DNA of 64,000 nucleotides from Vaginimicrobium propionicum (GTDB taxonomy: Bacteria > Actinomycetota > Actinomycetes > Propionibacteriales > Propionibacteriaceae), in the NCBI RefSeq assembly GCF_900155645.1, contig NZ_LT706985.1, positions 930,001 through 994,000 on the forward strand, read 5' to 3'. Under the pieces are notes generated by a model. It saw nothing but the letters and a program-made list of their open reading frames with translations, was not told the origin of the DNA and did no database searches. Both the position numbers and the translations under genes were made by a program. This document shows, piece after piece, positions 28,959 to 36,617 of the stretch. How positions within the stretch are numbered: position 1 is the stretch's first letter; the number at the start of each line of letters is the position of its first letter.

Positions 28959-29557
28959 CTTCTCGGTGAGCGCATCTGGACAATTTGATTCCAGACTTCA
29001 TCGACTCTGGCCAGGGTATCTTCCAGTGCCCCAGAATTGTCGATGACAACATCTGCAACGGCTAGTCGCTGCTCACGACTAGCCTGAGCAGCAAGACGCG
29101 CTTTCGCTTCATGCAGGCTGTAACCATTTCGCTTCATTAACCGCTCTAATTGCATTTCGACAGGCAAATCAACGACGATTAGCAAATCGAAGGCGTCCTG
29201 TTGCCCAGTTTCAACAAGCAACGGAATGACCTCTATCGCTACCTCATCTGAAGGTATTTCGTTTAAGGCAGCTAAGGAGGCTGCTTTTACTTCAGGATGG
29301 ACGATAGCGTTGAGGTCGGCACGCGCTTCATCATCATTAAAGACCACATCTGCTAACCACTTGCGGTCAATTTCGCCGTCCGAGCCGATTACCGAACGGG
29401 AAAACCGTTTGACTATCCGCTCAAAACCAGACGTACCATTCTCAACGACTCGTCTGGCCAAAACGTCCGCGTCAACGATGTGGGCACCAAGGCTAGCAAA
29501 CCGCTTAGCGACCACGCTCTTGCCAGAGGCGATTCCGCCGGTTAATCCGATAATCAT
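28955..29557 (-). CDS. coaE: Dephospho-CoA kinase (complete copy)
   Basis: Last step of coenzyme A synthesis. The 200 residues contain the P-loop IGLTGGIASGKSVVAKRF, DADVLARRVVENG near 30, and the lid region. TAAAGT lies at -12 to -7 before the ATG with no ribosome binding site, fitting a leaderless start. The first 260 coding bases (from 29557 down to 29298) recur as a second, truncated copy at 35559-35818 with seven differences, so this gene is probably a hybrid created when the neighbouring island integrated. Confidence 0.97.
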   Translation of the reverse strand: MIIGLTGGIASGKSVVAKRFASLGAHIVDADVLARRVVENGTSGFERIVKRFSRSVIGSDGEIDRKWLADVVFNDDEARADLNAIVHPEVKAASLAALNEIPSDEVAIEVIPLLVETGQQDAFDLLIVVDLPVEMQLERLMKRNGYSLHEAKARLAAQASREQRLAVADVVIDNSGALEDTLARVDEVWNQIVQMRSPRS

Positions 29558-29913
29558 GCGCCCACTTTAACCCGAAATTATTGGTTACAGGCGATCAGGC
29601 AATCAGCTTAGCCGCATCATGGGCTAACGACAGCGCAGTGGCATGAACCCCGGTACCCCAACCGCGCGGTTGATAGTCCACCTCGGCTAACGAGTCAGCA
29701 GTGAAAAGTAACTGTCCAAAGCTGATAGAACGAAAATCTGCGCAAGCAGCAAATGCTGAGCATTCCATTTCGACAACATCACAGCCTTCTTCACGCCGGT
29801 TAGCAATCATTTTCTCGGTTTCTCGATAAAAACCATCAGTTGTCCAGGTGGTTACCGACTTAACTTGAAAGCCGGCAGTATTTATTGCTTGGGTGACGGC
29901 GTCATTGATCATT
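29298..29913. repeat. Left 616-bp direct repeat flanking the island
   Basis: Covers the 5' 260 bases of coaE, the intergenic space and the last 319 bases of a nucleoside phosphorylase gene. Aligned by eye without gaps to 35559-36174; I count 44 differences in 616 bases (about 93% identity), seven of them in the coaE part. Both copies have the same orientation. Confidence 0.9.
29595..29913 (-). pseudogene. Nucleoside phosphorylase, 3' fragment
   Basis: Last 106 codons of the phosphorylase found complete at 35856-36617. The frame is intact, and most differences from the full copy are silent or conservative (for example TTWTTDGFYRETE and TADSLAEVDYQPRGWG are kept). It has no 5' end: homology stops abruptly at 29913, where unrelated island sequence begins. 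The conserved frame suggests it evolved as part of a working gene before it was cut. Confidence 0.85.
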
Positions 29914-30001
29914 TGATTAAAAGTCCCGAACGACGTTATTCAGATAGATCGGGGATGTCCTGCAAGAAATATATATATAAAACCAAAGCCGCATTTTCCA
30001 T

Positions 30002-30198: not shown

Positions 30199-30228
30199 CT
30201 GCAAAAGTAACACCCGTATGTTACTTTT
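30199..30228 (+). promoter_or_regulatory. Promoter and autorepressor operator of the AbiE-type fusion
   Basis: Perfect 10-bp inverted repeat, AAAAGTAACA (30203-30212) and TGTTACTTTT (30219-30228), with a six-base spacer. The right arm contains TACTTT at -12 to -7 from the ATG, and CTGCAA (30199-30204) lies 17 bases before it as a -35 box. A protein bound to the palindrome would cover the whole core promoter. AbiEi-family antitoxins are known to repress their own promoters through inverted repeats. Confidence 0.7.
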
Positions 30229-30233
30229 GAAGC

Positions 30234-31763
30234 ATGGATAGGGTTGATCAGCTAGAGGCGTTGAATCGAATTTCTGTTGGCCAGTGGGGGTTGTTCACTA
30301 CGGCACAAGCCCTGCGAGTTGGTTTTTCAAAAATGCAGCTATCTAGACTTGCTGAATATTTAGGTTTCTGGCGTATCAGAGAAGGCGTATACCAGATGCC
30401 AGGTTGGCCAGCAGGAGAAACTATTGAGATAAAGGCAAATTGGCTAGCCTTTGACCCAGAAAAAACTGCTGCTGAACGCTTAGATGATCCTTCTCCGGTA
30501 GCCGTCTCACATGAAAGCGCTTGCCTTATTTGGGGTATTGGAGATTTTCTCAGCCCAGAAATTTATTTCACTTCGCCTCAAAGAAGACAAACAAGACAAG
30601 AAAACGTAAAAATACACACCGCCAGTTTTCCTGGTAAAACAATCCACTACGTTGATTCCCTAGCGGTAACAAGCCCGCGACGCAGCCTAGAAGATGTAGC
30701 CAAAAGCAACAGATGGGACGACCAGCAGCTACGTTCAGCAATATTCGATGCGCTTAACAAAAAGATTCTCACAAACGGTGATGTATCTAAATCGAAAATC
30801 CTAAGCAGGCTCGCTCCTGAGTTAGCCGAACCTGCAAGCGACCAATCAGTACGAAGGTTATTGGCAAATGATGCCAAACGCCGAAACACAGATGTTAATG
30901 CTTCCTACACTCTCTTCCATCGAGCTTTGTTTTGCGATCGCCTTTGTCAGCTTTCAGACCAGTGGATACTTAAAGGCGGCACCGGAATGGTTCTGCGAGG
31001 TATCAGCACCAGAACTACCCGCGACCTTGATCTGACAAAGCCCAAGGGAAATAATCTACTCAAAGATGCTGCACAACTCGTAGAGCTAATGAACGGGCAA
31101 AAAGTCGGAAGATACACTTACCGAATCAAAATGCCAGAACACACGACCCCCGAAAATGTCGATACTTTGAAACTACACACAAAGATCCTTTACGGCGAAT
31201 CAATGCTGGATGTAGGTAGCTTCTCAATAGACGTAACCAATTCTCAACCGCTAGCGAAAGCACCTATAACTCAAACACTTTCGCGCGGAGACCAAGCGGT
31301 TATACCCGGGTACAGTTTCTACTTAAAAGTACGCATGTACCCCATAGAAAATCAGATTGCAGATAAAATCTGCGCACTCTATGAAAGCCATGCAAATCAA
31401 ACCTCAACACGTTTCAGAGATCTTTACGACCTAGCTTTACTAGGCAAAACAAAAGAATTCGATCTAAAGCTACTGGCTCAAGCGATACGCCAAGAAGCCC
31501 TCACTAGAAGCAATCTAAATCTCCCTGAAAAATTCATAGCCCCTTCGCCACACTGGCCTACCCAGTACAACAAAGTTATTTCAAAAACTAAAGGAACCGA
31601 CAAAGAACTCACTGACTTCGATGCCGCAATGCATGTAGTTTCTGACGCTTTTAATCCAGCCCTGGCCAACTACCACCAGCAAGCTAGCAGCAGAACTACC
31701 CGCCTAGATGAAATCCATCCTCACTCATGGCAAGAAACCGGAGAAATTGGCCGCACCGAGTAA
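30234..31763 (+). CDS. Single-chain AbiEi-like antitoxin / AbiEii-like nucleotidyltransferase toxin
   Basis: The 509-residue protein joins two parts normally made by separate genes. Residues 10-55 form a winged-helix DNA-binding region (GLFTTAQALRVGFSKMQLSRL, then EGVYQMPG). Residues 90-155 match the AbiEi C-terminal domain (SHESACLIWGIGDF, TSPQRR, TSPRRSLEDV). After a linker (about 195-215), residues 220-500 match AbiEii/AbiGii toxins: KGGTGMVLRG (247-256) and TTRDLDL (261-267) form the nucleotidyltransferase G-G-T/DxD site, YPIENQIADKICA (369-381) and RFRDLYDLALL (393-403) follow. All motifs look intact, so it is probably functional. The family gives abortive-infection defence. There is no frameshift between the parts and no separate partner gene nearby. 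The start is leaderless. Confidence 0.85.
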   Translation: MDRVDQLEALNRISVGQWGLFTTAQALRVGFSKMQLSRLAEYLGFWRIREGVYQMPGWPAGETIEIKANWLAFDPEKTAAERLDDPSPVAVSHESACLIWGIGDFLSPEIYFTSPQRRQTRQENVKIHTASFPGKTIHYVDSLAVTSPRRSLEDVAKSNRWDDQQLRSAIFDALNKKILTNGDVSKSKILSRLAPELAEPASDQSVRRLLANDAKRRNTDVNASYTLFHRALFCDRLCQLSDQWILKGGTGMVLRGISTRTTRDLDLTKPKGNNLLKDAAQLVELMNGQKVGRYTYRIKMPEHTTPENVDTLKLHTKILYGESMLDVGSFSIDVTNSQPLAKAPITQTLSRGDQAVIPGYSFYLKVRMYPIENQIADKICALYESHANQTSTRFRDLYDLALLGKTKEFDLKLLAQAIRQEALTRSNLNLPEKFIAPSPHWPTQYNKVISKTKGTDKELTDFDAAMHVVSDAFNPALANYHQQASSRTTRLDEIHPHSWQETGEIGRTE

Positions 31764-31812: not shown

Positions 31813-32265
31813 ATGGTGCTTGTTCCTGATTCTTGGGTTGAATCGCTTAAGGCGTTCACAAATTATTTGATAGTTGCTGGATACAGTTTTGCGACGATAA
31901 GCACCCGGTACTATCAACTCTCGCAACTGCCAGAGCCTTCCCGGAAGGCGTAGAGGCAGCAAAGAACGAATCCTGCCTATCACAGAATCAATGGCCGAAC
32001 GACTCAGCTGGAAACAAGGGTGGGCGTTCCCGTCGCAACCAGACAACTCAAAACACATCACACCCGGCCACGTTGGAAAGATGATAAAAACTAACAGACG
32101 GGCGATGGACTCTTCACCAACTGCGACACAGGTTCGGAACAACTGTCTGGCAGCAGACACACGACCTGCTAACCGTGCAGACCTTGCTAGGGCACGAATC
32201 CCCGAGCCAGCAGATTTACCGCCAGAACAACGTCCTGGAGATGTACCCGAAGCACAGATCACAGA
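31813..32265 (+). pseudogene. Tyrosine recombinase (integrase) remnant
   Basis: Starts at ATG 31813 with an integrase core-binding domain (WVESLKAFTNYLIVAGYSF), stops in frame at 31953, and continues in other frames. LPITESMAERLSW...GWAFPSQ (about 31970-32060) and then the catalytic box WTLHQLRHRFGTT...LLTVQTLLGH (about 32105-32205) with the nucleophile Tyr in QQIYRQ. About 100-150 residues in the middle are missing and at least two frameshifts occur, so it cannot be active. It was probably the element's own integrase. Confidence 0.75.
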
Positions 32266-32946
32266 CGATAATGAAACCTACTCGCCAGTATTCGATGAGG
32301 ACGGCAATCAGCTCGACACCACCAGAACTGAGCGCATACTCGAGCTGAACAAGGCGGCAGCCGACTACTTCGCATGCAACTACAGCACAGACCCAGCCGC
32401 TTATATTGCTTCACGCTTTGGCAGTGACCTCAAAAATGATCCACGCTTCAATATCGACTACGCCCCACCAGGATGGGACAACCTCACCCGCCGCTTACAA
32501 ACAACCATGAACGCCAGCAAGGACGAACTCGTTGATGCCGGACTAGCCAAATACTCCTCTCGTGGAACACTCATAGACGTATTCCGCGACCGCGTAACAA
32601 TCGCAATGAGCGACGGAGACAAGATCTTAGGCTTCACAGGCAGAGCAAACCCCGCAGACAAACGCGCACCAAAATACCTAAATACACCCGCCACAAAAGT
32701 CTTCACCAAGGGCAACTATTTATACGGCGCAGACCAGCTCAACTCGGACGCGACTCCGGTACATGCGAAGGCCCGCTAGACACAATAGCGATCACCCTAA
32801 ACGGAGACAAGAACACCACCGGACTAGCCCAAAACAAAACCATTGGCATGGCCCCCAAAGGCACCGCGCTAACACATGCTCAAGTAGCTAAACTCTCAAA
32901 GCGTTTTACTGAAAACCCTCTCCTAGTCCTAGCAACAGACAACTGA
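32226..32946 (+). pseudogene. DnaG-type primase/Toprim fragment of a mobile element
   Basis: Decoded residues match the catalytic core of Toprim primase domains found in actinobacterial relaxase-type proteins: ELNKAAADYF, RFNIDYAPPGWDNLTRRL, SSRGTLIDVFRDRV, GFTGRANP...KYLNTPATKVFTKGNYLYG. A one-base deletion near 32767 shifts the frame; beyond it EGPLDTIAIT, MAPKGTALT and LLVLATDN are recognisable, where the DxD of the Toprim site begins. The IS3 element interrupts directly after TDN, and its first bases supply the stop codon. Both ends of the original, probably very large, gene are missing. Confidence 0.7.
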
Positions 32947-33010: not shown

Positions 33011-33331
33011 ATGGCAGGAGTAGGAAAGACCCGGCGTAGGTTCACGCCGGAATATCGTGAAGAGGCCGCTCGTTTGGTCGTCGACACTGGAAGACCGATC
33101 GCGCATGTCGCACGAGAGCTCGGTTTGGGTGAACAGCTCTTGGGTAAATGGGTGCGCAAGTACCGGCAGGAACAGGGAAACGAGCCGACTGGCGAGTTGT
33201 CTGTGGATGAGCGGGTTGAGCTCAAACGGTTACGGCGTGAGGTTCAAGAGCTGAAAAAGGACAACGCGTTTTTGGGAAAAGCAGCAGCCTTCTTCGCGTC
33301 GAAGCAACCACCTGCGAACGGTTTGAGCTAA
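33011..33331 (+). CDS. IS3-family transposase OrfA
   Basis: DNA-binding half of the transposase, 106 residues: helix-turn-helix (FTPEYREEAARLVVDTG...IAHVARELGLGEQLLGKW) and a leucine-zipper-like tail (VELKRLRREVQELKKDNAFL). Near the end the bases G GGA AAA (33274-33280) form a classic -1 slippery heptamer in the correct phase. The -1 frame beyond it reads EATTCERFELMEQEK and runs into OrfB, so an OrfAB fusion made by frameshifting is likely. Confidence 0.9.
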   Translation: MAGVGKTRRRFTPEYREEAARLVVDTGRPIAHVARELGLGEQLLGKWVRKYRQEQGNEPTGELSVDERVELKRLRREVQELKKDNAFLGKAAAFFASKQPPANGLS

Positions 33332-34224
33332 TGGAACAGGAGAAGGCAAACTTCGAGATCACACGCATGGCTCGGCTGTTAGAGGTGTCACGGTCAGGCT
33401 ATTACGCCTGGGTCAAGCGACGGAAAACGGGGCCGTCTCCACGAGCGCAGAAACAGGCCATACTTGACCAGAAAGTCCGCGAGTTTCATGCCGATTCCGA
33501 TGGTGTTTACGGGGCACCCAGGATCACGGCTGATTTTCACGCTGAAGGCACGCAGGTGAATGTGAAAACAGTGGCGGCATCCATGCGCCGACAAGGCCTT
33601 GAAGGCATTTCACCACGCGGATTCACCCCAGTGACGACAATTCCTGGGATCCCGACTCATGCGATTTTTGACCGTGTCAAACGGGTGTGGGATACCGGAA
33701 AACTCAACACAGTGTGGATCTCGGACATCACCTATTTACGTACTGGCGAGGGCTGGCTCTACCTGTGTGTCGTTCGTGATGGCTGTTCACGTCGCGTCTT
33801 GGGATGGGCCATGGACAGCCACCAAGATGCCGACCTGGTTGAACGCGCATTGGTGATGGCCAAAACTTTACGCGGCGATTTCCCCGGCCGCGTCATCTTC
33901 CATGCTGATCGCGGCACTCAATACACCTCCGAGCAGTTATACAAAGCCACTAAGCGACTTAGCATCGATCAATCGATGGGCCGCACTGGCGTGTGCTACG
34001 ACAACGCGATGGCAGAATCCTTCTGGTCAACGCTGAAAAACGAGTTCTACAACCGTTTCACATGGCCGACACGAGCCGATGCCAGACAAGGCGTCGCCCG
34101 CTGGATCGAAGTCACCTACAATCGCACACGCCGACACTCATCAATCGGCTACCTCCGCCCAGTCGAATACGAAACCAACCTGGAAAAACAAGAACAAACA
34201 CACCAACAACCACAAGCAGCATAA
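33331..34224 (+). CDS. IS3-family transposase OrfB (DDE integrase)
   Basis: Catalytic half of 297 residues with an rve fold. The DDE triad is intact: Asp in WISDITYLRTG, Asp in FHADRGTQYTS, and Glu in NAMAESFWSTLKNE with the usual 35-residue spacing. The ATG overlaps the OrfA stop codon (TAATG), which allows coupled translation; the productive transposase is probably the frameshifted OrfAB fusion. Both frames look intact, so the element may still be mobile. Confidence 0.93.
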   Translation: MEQEKANFEITRMARLLEVSRSGYYAWVKRRKTGPSPRAQKQAILDQKVREFHADSDGVYGAPRITADFHAEGTQVNVKTVAASMRRQGLEGISPRGFTPVTTIPGIPTHAIFDRVKRVWDTGKLNTVWISDITYLRTGEGWLYLCVVRDGCSRRVLGWAMDSHQDADLVERALVMAKTLRGDFPGRVIFHADRGTQYTSEQLYKATKRLSIDQSMGRTGVCYDNAMAESFWSTLKNEFYNRFTWPTRADARQGVARWIEVTYNRTRRHSSIGYLRPVEYETNLEKQEQTHQQPQAA

Positions 34225-35334: not shown

Positions 35335-35558
35335 TTAGTTGTTTTGTAGAACTTTTATGCGTCTTCGTAGACTGGCGGGCATAGGTGCCCGATTTTCTGG
35401 TGGCACGGGTGGACGGTCGCGTTCAGCTCGATGCAGGAGTTGATCAAGTGACGGTGGTGGTGCGAGCGGTAGCGACTTGATGCGGTAAGCGACCAGACCC
35501 GTCAAATTCTGCACGGTTTCTGGTAGCCGGTTACCGGCAAGCGTGGCTTTCAACCGGG
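35335..35558 (-). pseudogene. C-terminal remnant of an unidentified island gene
   Basis: The frame runs from the edge of the right repeat (35558) to a stop at 35335 and encodes a Pro-rich tail (NLTGLVAYRIKSLPLAPPP, then PPVPPENRAPMP). Such tails occur at the ends of replication or helicase-like proteins of actinobacterial mobile elements, but I cannot name the family. Its 5' part was lost at the junction with the coaE fragment; the open frame that reads further back enters antisense coaE sequence by chance. Confidence 0.4.
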
Positions 35559-35818
35559 TGGACGATAGCGTTGAGGTCGGCACGCGCTTCATCATCATTA
35601 AAGACCACATCTGCTAACCACTTGCGGTCAATTTCCCCGTCTGAACCGATGACCGAACGGGAAAACCGTTTGACTATGCGCTCAAAACCAGGCGTACCAT
35701 TCTCAACGACTCGTCTGGCCAAAACGTCCGCGTCAACGATGTGGGCACCAAGGCTAGCAAACCGCTTAGCGACCACGCTCTTGCCAGAGGCGACTCCGCC
35801 GGTTAATCCGATAATCAT
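35559..35818 (-). pseudogene. coaE: Dephospho-CoA kinase, 5' fragment
   Basis: First 86 codons of coaE (P-loop LTGGVASGKSVVAKRF to DLNAIVHP), ending at the island junction at 35559. Identical to the complete copy except for seven bases, including Ile to Val in the P-loop region. The upstream -10 box and leaderless start are also copied, so a short truncated peptide may still be made. Confidence 0.9.
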
Positions 35819-36174
35819 GCGCCCACTTTAACCCGAAATTATTGGTTACAGGCGATCAGGCAATCAGCTTAGCTGCATCATGGGCTAACGACAGCGCGGC
35901 AGCATGGACGCCAACACCCCAACCGCGCGGTTGGTAGTCCACCTCGGCTAACGAGTCAGCGGTGAAAAGCAACTGCCCGAAAGCGATATTTCGAAAATTG
36001 GCGCAAGCGGCGAATGCTGAGCATTCCATTTCGACAACATCACAACCTTCTTCGCGTCGATGGGCAATCATTTGCTCGGTTTCTCGATAAAAACCATCAG
36101 TTGTCCAGGTGGTTACCGGCTTAGCTTGGAAACCGGCAGTATTTATTGCTTGGGTAACGGCGTCATTAATCATT
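35559..36174. repeat. Right 616-bp direct repeat flanking the island
   Basis: Same-orientation partner of 29298-29913 with no gaps. Its left edge meets island sequence at 35558 and its right edge continues into the complete phosphorylase gene. See the left copy for the count of differences. Confidence 0.9.
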
Positions 36175-36617
36175 GGGTTAGTGGTTATCCATCGGGCAGC
36201 TTCGAGGTAGTGATAGCTGGCACCTTCATCGCGCAGAGCACGTACCGGAACTAAAAATTCGCCTTCCTCAAAGTCATGCAAAGTGCCACAAGAACCCACT
36301 GCGATTATTTTCTTAGCTCCACGTTGAATAAGATTCTCCATGAGAATCAAGGCGGCTGGTGCTCCAATTGGGGTTTTCGCTAAACCTATTCCTTGCTCTA
36401 ACTTCCAAACCGGGTAGCGGTCTGTTACCAGATCGATATCACCAATTTTCTGCGCCTTGTTATCCTCCACATAACGATTTATTTGTTCGCCAATGATCGC
36501 CATTATCATGACTGAAGGAACCAAAAAATCGTTCGAACTTTTCTGCTTATGCGCAGTTATGACATCTAAAGTTTCGTCATCACGATCTAATATCGGCCAC
36601 TGACCCAAATACAACAC
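35856..36617 (-). CDS. Nucleoside phosphorylase (PNP/UDP family), complete copy
   Basis: Phosphorolytic nucleosidase-type enzyme of about 253 residues. Seen: GLAKTPIGAPAA and GSCGTLHDF (phosphate and base site), TTDGFYRE, and the ribose-binding VVEMECSAFAACA near the C-terminus. The nucleoside used cannot be told. GTG 36617 is preferred: TACGCT lies at -12 to -7, and the length then fits the family; an open frame reaches 36749 but that part is low-complexity. The last 319 coding bases lie in the right repeat. The gene sits just beyond the rRNA operon terminators. Confidence 0.8.
   Translation of the reverse strand: MLYLGQWPILDRDDETLDVITAHKQKSSNDFLVPSVMIMAIIGEQINRYVEDNKAQKIGDIDLVTDRYPVWKLEQGIGLAKTPIGAPAALILMENLIQRGAKKIIAVGSCGTLHDFEEGEFLVPVRALRDEGASYHYLEAARWITTNPMINDAVTQAINTAGFQAKPVTTWTTDGFYRETEQMIAHRREEGCDVVEMECSAFAACANFRNIAFGQLLFTADSLAEVDYQPRGWGVGVHAAALSLAHDAAKLIA

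What the first reader, a model, noticed from the sequence alone, without database searches (positions are those of the whole stretch)
30234..31763. AbiEi antitoxin and AbiEii toxin in one polypeptide
Type IV AbiE systems are normally two genes whose products are thought not to form a stable complex. Here a winged helix, the AbiEi C-terminal domain and a complete nucleotidyltransferase with intact GGT and DxD motifs are read in a single 509-codon frame with no frameshift and no separate partner. If active, the DNA-binding antitoxin would always travel with the toxin, which calls for within-chain control, for proteolytic release, or for a different regulatory logic. Related MenT toxins modify tRNA 3' ends, so tRNA is a candidate target.
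Basis: partly seen in the sequence, partly recalled or inferred. Interest (0 to 1): 0.75.

Follow-up and report, generated by a model that had tools for sequence, protein, structure and literature searches.

The report
Single-chain AbiE toxin–antitoxin fusion
One bacterial gene here makes an AbiE growth-stopping toxin and its DNA-binding antitoxin as a single conserved protein instead of two; the joined form has persisted in several related bacteria, so how such a toxin is kept off and switched on can now be tested in one molecule.

Summary
Window 30234-31763 (+) is one uninterrupted 509-codon frame: residues 1-~200 are an AbiEi antitoxin and ~201-485 an AbiEii/MenT nucleotidyltransferase with every catalytic motif intact. 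It is neither a sequencing accident nor unique. Fused homologues (34-39% identical) occur in Acidipropionibacterium timonense, Propioniciclava tarda and two more Propionibacteriaceae genomes. They form one clade (bootstrap/SH-aLRT 100/100), with dN/dS about 0.2 across the join between the closest pair. A second fusion, in an Actinophytocola metagenome assembly, arose independently (AU p = 0.002). All other actinobacterial relatives examined are two-gene pairs, and this genome also carries an ordinary AbiE pair elsewhere. The fused gene keeps the palindromic operator GTAAC-N8-GTTAC of its two-gene sister clade, directly before the start codon. AlphaFold gives one ordered molecule with a helical, confident junction, matching MenT3 and AbiEi structures. 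The phosphoacceptor Ser/Thr used to silence MenT3 and MenT1 is retained (T262). Most likely this is a single-gene AbiE: an autorepressing antitoxin domain holding its own toxin off in cis and released by a trigger, as in CapRel. Toxicity, cis-inhibition and phage defence are untested. No published AbiEi-AbiEii fusion was found. New variant of a known kind.

The parts
30234..31763 (+). Fused abiEi-abiEii gene, 509 aa
   Evidence: fused homologues
30234..30824 (+). AbiEi antitoxin part, residues 1-197: winged helix about 1-55, then the AbiEi C-terminal domain with conserved D154
   Evidence: PADLOC PDLC02231 1.6e-57; Foldseek hit to AbiEi 6Y8Q 4.5e-5
30816..30899 (+). Junction, residues 195-222; equals the AbiEi-stop/AbiEii-start position of split systems; predicted helical, pLDDT 91-96
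30900..31688 (+). AbiEii/MenT-type nucleotidyltransferase, residues 223-485
   Evidence: PDLC02291 1.6e-57, PF08843 5.8e-22, Foldseek hit to TglT/MenT3 7.4e-14
30972..30983 (+). Motif I, K247-G-G-T250
31011..31031 (+). Motif II, R260-T-T262-R-D264-L-D266; T262 lies at the phosphoacceptor position (MenT3 S78, MenT1 T39)
   Evidence: alignment to Rv1045 structures; S/T in 7 of 7 fused-clade and L062 rows and 89 of 89 filled split rows
31365..31430 (+). Motifs III and IV: K378, R393, D396, D399
30199..30232 (.). Operator-like palindrome CTGCAAAAGTAACA-N6-TGTTACTTTTGAAG immediately before the ATG
   Evidence: 13 pairs, 1 mismatch, 0 of 100 shuffles as good; core GTAAC-N8-GTTAC shared with fused and split relatives; expected 0.04 in 64 kb

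Best explanation
It is a single-gene form of the AbiE (MenAT3-like) toxin-antitoxin system. SHOWN by sequence: an AbiEi antitoxin and a complete AbiEii nucleotidyltransferase in one frame, conserved as a fusion in a Propionibacteriaceae clade under purifying selection, behind the ancestral AbiE operator. INFERRED: (1) the winged helix binds the palindrome at 30199-30232 and represses its own gene, so the toxin is also bound at that operator; (2) in the resting state the AbiEi domain keeps the nucleotidyltransferase silent in cis, by covering the pocket and/or by promoting auto-phosphorylation of T262, as MenA3 does for MenT3 S78; (3) because the antitoxin cannot be degraded separately, activation must come from a trigger that alters the AbiEi domain or the operator-bound state (for example a phage product), as in the fused CapRel system, rather than from antitoxin decay; (4) once active, the enzyme transfers nucleotides to an RNA, probably tRNA 3' ends, and stops growth.
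For: Both families full length in one chain. Five fused Propionibacteriaceae genes including the window. Fused clade 100/100 with sister two-gene systems. pN/pS 0.20/0.60 over the chain, and 0.23/0.68 across the 50 junction codons, between A. timonense and L034. Catalytic and phosphoacceptor residues all kept. Operator core GTAAC-N8-GTTAC shared by the window, A. timonense, L034 and the two-gene sister clade; two places in the whole own genome, one of them here. AlphaFold pLDDT 88 and 89, pTM 0.79 and 0.78 for two fused homologues 38% identical, with an ordered junction. Foldseek matches to TglT/MenT3 and to AbiEi. No Shine-Dalgarno plus in-frame start near the junction in the window, P. tarda or L035. 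Literature: AbiEi binds inverted repeats in its promoter (PMC3985639); MenA3/TakA causes S78 phosphorylation (PMC7205606, PMC11375011); the CapRel antitoxin domain inhibits its toxin in cis and senses phage capsid (PMC9712102).
Against: No activity data. MenA3 H98, needed for antitoxicity, has no firmly aligned counterpart; the likely position is W100 here and varies W/H/Y. A 14-row alignment is shallow for domain packing. One clade member (L034/L061) has a frameshift inside the toxin and another (L036/L063) a 1-nt shift at the junction; both are metagenome assemblies, so error or decay cannot be told apart. P. tarda, L036 and L035 lack the exact operator core, though L035 has AACA-N6-TGTT.
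Confidence: 0.55

Rival explanations
1. Proteolytic or translational release: the chain is only a precursor, and a free toxin is made by cleavage at the junction or by internal initiation.
For: The junction coincides with the natural gene boundary. A. timonense codon 215 and L034 codon 200 have weak Shine-Dalgarno-like stretches before an in-frame start.
Against: Junction predicted helical with pLDDT 91-96 in two homologues and conserved (APELAPPASHQSV; pN/pS 0.23/0.68). No internal start with Shine-Dalgarno in the window, P. tarda or L035.
Confidence: 0.15
2. A nucleotidyltransferase-containing transcriptional regulator that is no longer a toxin: the enzyme domain serves as a nucleotide sensor or has a non-toxic substrate.
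For: Winged helix and operator conserved; the gene stands alone, with no partner.
Against: All four toxicity motifs defined by mutagenesis in AbiEii are intact (PMC3985639). The operator core has only one other place in the genome, so there is no regulon. Genes sit in mobile or patchy contexts.
Confidence: 0.15
3. A relic: an accidental fusion that inactivated the system, kept by chance on a decaying mobile element.
For: The window copy lies beside a truncated primase and an IS3 element between a 93% direct duplication. Two clade members carry frameshifts.
Against: Fusion shared by at least five divergent genomes with all catalytic residues kept and dN/dS about 0.2, including the junction.
Confidence: 0.12

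Closest known systems
AbiE type IV toxin-antitoxin system (AbiEi/AbiEii, Streptococcus agalactiae; PMC3985639)
   Same: Both protein families, all NTase motifs, and inverted repeats just before the first gene.
   Different: One gene and one polypeptide instead of a bicistronic operon; fixed 1:1 stoichiometry; the antitoxin cannot be lost separately; the AbiEi tail of many actinobacterial homologues is missing.
MenA3-MenT3 (TakA-TglT, Rv1044-Rv1045; PMC7205606, PMC11375011)
   Same: Closest solved fold for the toxin half (TglT/MenT3, Foldseek 7.4e-14); conserved Ser/Thr phosphoacceptor, K61/R76/D80/D82/K189/R205/D208/D211 equivalents; COG5340-type antitoxin.
   Different: Two separate proteins in M. 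tuberculosis; about 21% identity; kinase or auto-phosphorylation activity untested here.
CapRel fused toxin-antitoxin (toxSAS; PMC9712102)
   Same: Toxin and antitoxin in one chain; a tRNA-modifying toxin class; regulatory logic proposed as analogous.
   Different: Unrelated toxin (alarmone-synthetase fold) and antitoxin (pseudo-zinc-finger) domains in the opposite order; CapRel's antitoxin is not a winged-helix repressor.

Membership tests
AbiE type IV TA | AbiEi antitoxin (COG5340-type winged helix plus C-terminal domain) | tested here: met
   PDLC02231 1.6e-57 over residues 1-217; Foldseek hit to AbiEi 6Y8Q. Pfam AbiEi_4 alone is below its cut-off.
AbiE type IV TA | AbiEii/DUF1814 NTase with motifs I-IV | tested here: met
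   PF08843 5.8e-22; residues conserved
AbiE type IV TA | Bicistronic operon of two separate proteins | tested here: not met
   One 509-codon frame, fused homologues. Hence filed as a single-gene variant, not a canonical AbiE.
AbiE type IV TA | Antitoxin autoregulates through inverted repeats in the promoter | tested here: inconclusive
   Conserved palindrome at the right place; binding and repression not assayed
AbiE type IV TA | Toxin arrests growth, antitoxin neutralises, partners do not stably interact | not testable with these tools
   Needs expression, pull-down and growth assays
MenA3-MenT3 (TakA-TglT) | Phosphorylatable Ser/Thr two residues before the first catalytic Asp | tested here: met
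   T262-R263-D264; S/T in all filled rows
MenA3-MenT3 (TakA-TglT) | Antitoxin residues H98 and D155 needed for neutralisation | tested here: inconclusive
   D154 is near-invariant and W100 lies at a position usually His, but MenA3 itself was not aligned, so equivalence is by position only
CapRel fused toxSAS | Alarmone-synthetase toxin domain and pseudo-zinc-finger antitoxin | tested here: not met
   Domains are AbiEi and AbiEii; works-like comparison only

The most novel reading that the evidence does not exclude
A DNA-anchored, self-inhibited tRNA-modifying immune protein: the winged helix parks the toxin on its own operator and the AbiEi domain is itself the phage sensor, so that trigger binding releases repression and toxin together. 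This would be a CapRel-like sensor-effector evolved independently from AbiE parts, at least twice.
Probability: 0.22. Interest if true: 0.82.

Novelty: new variant of a known kind. Interest (0 to 1): 0.6.

Why it matters
AbiE is among the commonest prokaryotic defence/TA systems, yet whether AbiEi and AbiEii must touch each other is disputed (type IV versus induced auto-phosphorylation). A natural, selected fusion shows that covalent linkage is compatible with function, and it provides a single chain in which neutralisation, DNA binding and activation can be dissected. It also predicts that the fused form should be poor at plasmid addiction (there is no separately decaying antitoxin) while possibly remaining a phage-defence switch, so it can separate the two proposed roles of AbiE. 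It would be a second toxin family, after toxSAS/CapRel, in which a translation-targeting toxin has been fused to its antitoxin.

Tried and rejected
Sequencing or assembly artefact: rejected, since independent isolates share the fusion. One-off fusion: rejected. Single origin of all fusions including Actinophytocola L062: rejected by AU test, p = 0.0019. G024 (L007) at first looked fused because of one long open frame; it is two genes in the same frame separated by a stop and 3 nt. First genome-contig scan with the single protein found nothing; phage records and viral contigs hold no relative; plasmid relatives that were listed with annotation are separate genes. A 125-row alignment mixing N-only and C-only fragments was misaligned by MAFFT (A2) and was not used. 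The sigma-70 promoter scan gave nothing above chance near the start. The viral fold library gave only weak, generic matches. Literature searches for an AbiEi-AbiEii fusion found none; the library lacks most subscription journals.

Full report
Observation. The window holds one uninterrupted ORF at 30234-31763 (+), 509 aa, starting with ATG. PADLOC profiles assign residues 1-217 to AbiEi (PDLC02231, 1.6e-57) and 201-484 to AbiEii (PDLC02291, 1.6e-57). Pfam finds AbiEii at 5.8e-22, while its AbiEi_4 model alone is sub-threshold. A profile of the family finds Rv1045 (TglT/MenT3) structures at 6e-18. An AlphaFold model (mean pLDDT 88, pTM 0.79) matches TglT/MenT3 (7.4e-14) and S. agalactiae AbiEi 6Y8Q (4.5e-5).

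Catalytic anatomy. Against Rv1045 (residue numbers from PMC7205606 and PMC11375011) the toxin half keeps K61/G62/G63 = K247/G248/G249, R76 = R260, S78 = T262, D80/D82 = D264/D266, K189 = K378, R205 = R393 and D208/D211 = D396/D399. Across the 99 loci with both halves these positions are nearly invariant, and the phosphoacceptor position is Ser or Thr in every filled row, fused or split. AbiEii motif mutants lose toxicity in S. agalactiae (PMC3985639), so by sequence the enzyme is competent; activity itself is untested.

Distribution. In the 199 held genomes of the family, five carry a fused gene: the window genome, A. timonense (G053/L003/L060), P. tarda (G068/L004/L064), G168 (L035) and G214 (L034/L061). 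A sixth clade member, G211 (L036/L063), is shifted by one nucleotide exactly at the junction, giving an AbiEi stop that overlaps a GTG start (GTGA). L034/L061 reads through the junction but has a frameshift between K378 and R393. Both of these are metagenome assemblies. Searches of about 400 genomes each at order, class and phylum level gave no further fusions above threshold; all other pairs were separate genes. One further fused gene, L062 (Actinophytocola metagenome assembly), was found by the genome-contig scan. The survey covers Actinomycetota; other phyla were not surveyed for fusions.

Phylogeny. On concatenated halves the Propionibacteriaceae fused genes plus L036 form one clade (99 in the 99-row quick tree; 100/100 in the careful 34-row tree). 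Its sister is a two-gene clade from another family of the order, at 94/91. L036 nests inside as sister of P. tarda (100/99), so its split state is secondary or an error. Holding L062 with the clade is rejected (p-AU 0.0019), hence at least two fusion events. In L062 the first part of AbiEii is missing, another sign of a separate event. Several unrelated split systems (L007, L037, L137, L139, L155) have both genes in the same frame separated by a single stop, which shows how easily a fusion can arise.

Selection. Between A. timonense and L034 (66% identical), pN/pS is 0.20/0.60 overall, 0.19/0.58 in the winged-helix end, 0.22/0.58 in the AbiEi C-terminal domain, 0.23/0.68 in the 50 junction codons and 0.19/0.60 in the NTase. 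The fused frame, junction included, is therefore under purifying selection, with the caveat that L034 carries a later frameshift.

Operator. Directly before the ATG (30199-30232) lies CTGCAAAAGTAACA-N6-TGTTACTTTTGAAG, 13 of 14 complementary, not matched in 100 shuffles. Its core GTAAC-N8-GTTAC occurs once in the window (0.04 expected) and at only two places in the 2.01 Mb genome. The same core precedes fused A. timonense and L034 and members of the order's two-gene systems, including the sister clade (L009, L012, L013, L166, L170, L174). L035 has AACA-N6-TGTT at the same distance from the start codon as the window and A. timonense. P. tarda and L036 do not have the exact core. Retained autorepression is therefore likely; binding is inferred from S. 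agalactiae AbiEi (PMC3985639).

Mechanism. S. agalactiae AbiEi and AbiEii did not co-precipitate and were called type IV (PMC3985639), but TakA and TglT interact and TakA causes S78 phosphorylation (PMC7205606), later explained as antitoxin-induced auto-phosphorylation through an antitoxin loop that pushes S78 toward ATP (PMC11375011). Such a transient contact is easily accommodated in one chain. The junction here is predicted helical and confident (pLDDT 91-96) in two homologues only 38% identical, and pTM 0.78-0.79 suggests a defined domain arrangement (inference). No coordinates were available to check pocket occlusion. A loose, cleavable linker is therefore not favoured, and no internal ribosome-binding site with start codon is seen in the window, P. 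tarda or L035. Since the antitoxin cannot decay alone, activation by trigger sensing, as in the fused CapRel system (PMC9712102), is the most economical reading. This last step is inference.

Context. The gene lies in a 5.6 kb insert between two copies (29295-29919 and 35556-36180, 92.8% identical) of a coaE-mtnN segment, with a DnaG-N primase fragment and an IS3 element. L035 sits next to a TrwC relaxase and P. tarda next to a Mutator transposase. The A. timonense and L061 copies start about 130-175 nt downstream of a tRNA gene. The same genome has an ordinary AbiE pair with a 4-nt overlap near position 1,055,000, a natural internal control.

Verdict. The protein is a conserved single-gene variant of AbiE; the two-gene criterion of canonical AbiE is not met. 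The cis-inhibited, operator-binding toxin is the best explanation (0.55). Interest 0.6: not a new kind of system, but an undescribed architecture in the literature searched, and one that makes the disputed AbiEi-AbiEii contact directly testable.

Noticed in passing
window 29295-29919 and 35556-36180: 625-nt direct duplication (92.8%) of a coaE 5'/mtnN 3' segment brackets a 5.6 kb insert carrying the fused gene; arrangement as after single-crossover integration of a small element.
   Followed up: partly
window 31991-32779 and 33011-34224: Truncated DnaG-N primase reading frame and an IS3-family transposase (two ORFs) in the same insert.
   Followed up: partly
L002 1333-2771 (own genome C1 about 1,054,900-1,056,350): Second, conventional AbiE pair in the same genome (AbiEi 199 aa, AbiEii 280 aa, 4-nt overlap).
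   Followed up: yes
L063 about 6580 (= L036): Clade member split by one nucleotide exactly at the fusion junction, giving a GTGA stop/start overlap; real fission or assembly error unresolved.
   Followed up: partly
L060 5739-5818 and L061 1365-1439: Fused abiE genes lie just downstream of tRNA-Gln and tRNA-Lys genes in two genomes.
   Followed up: no
L071, L077, L088, L090, L091, L092, L101, L102, L124: Streptomyces frames of 565-724 codons carry an AbiEi-like domain but show no AbiEii match behind it; the partner domain was not identified.
   Followed up: no
L014, L039, L042, L022, L013, L065 upstream of abiEi: Many split actinobacterial abiE operons carry long palindromes at or just before the start codon (e.g. 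TGCTTGGATACTAACA-N7-TGTTAGTATCCAAGCA), suggesting a family-wide operator and, in some, leaderless transcripts.
   Followed up: partly
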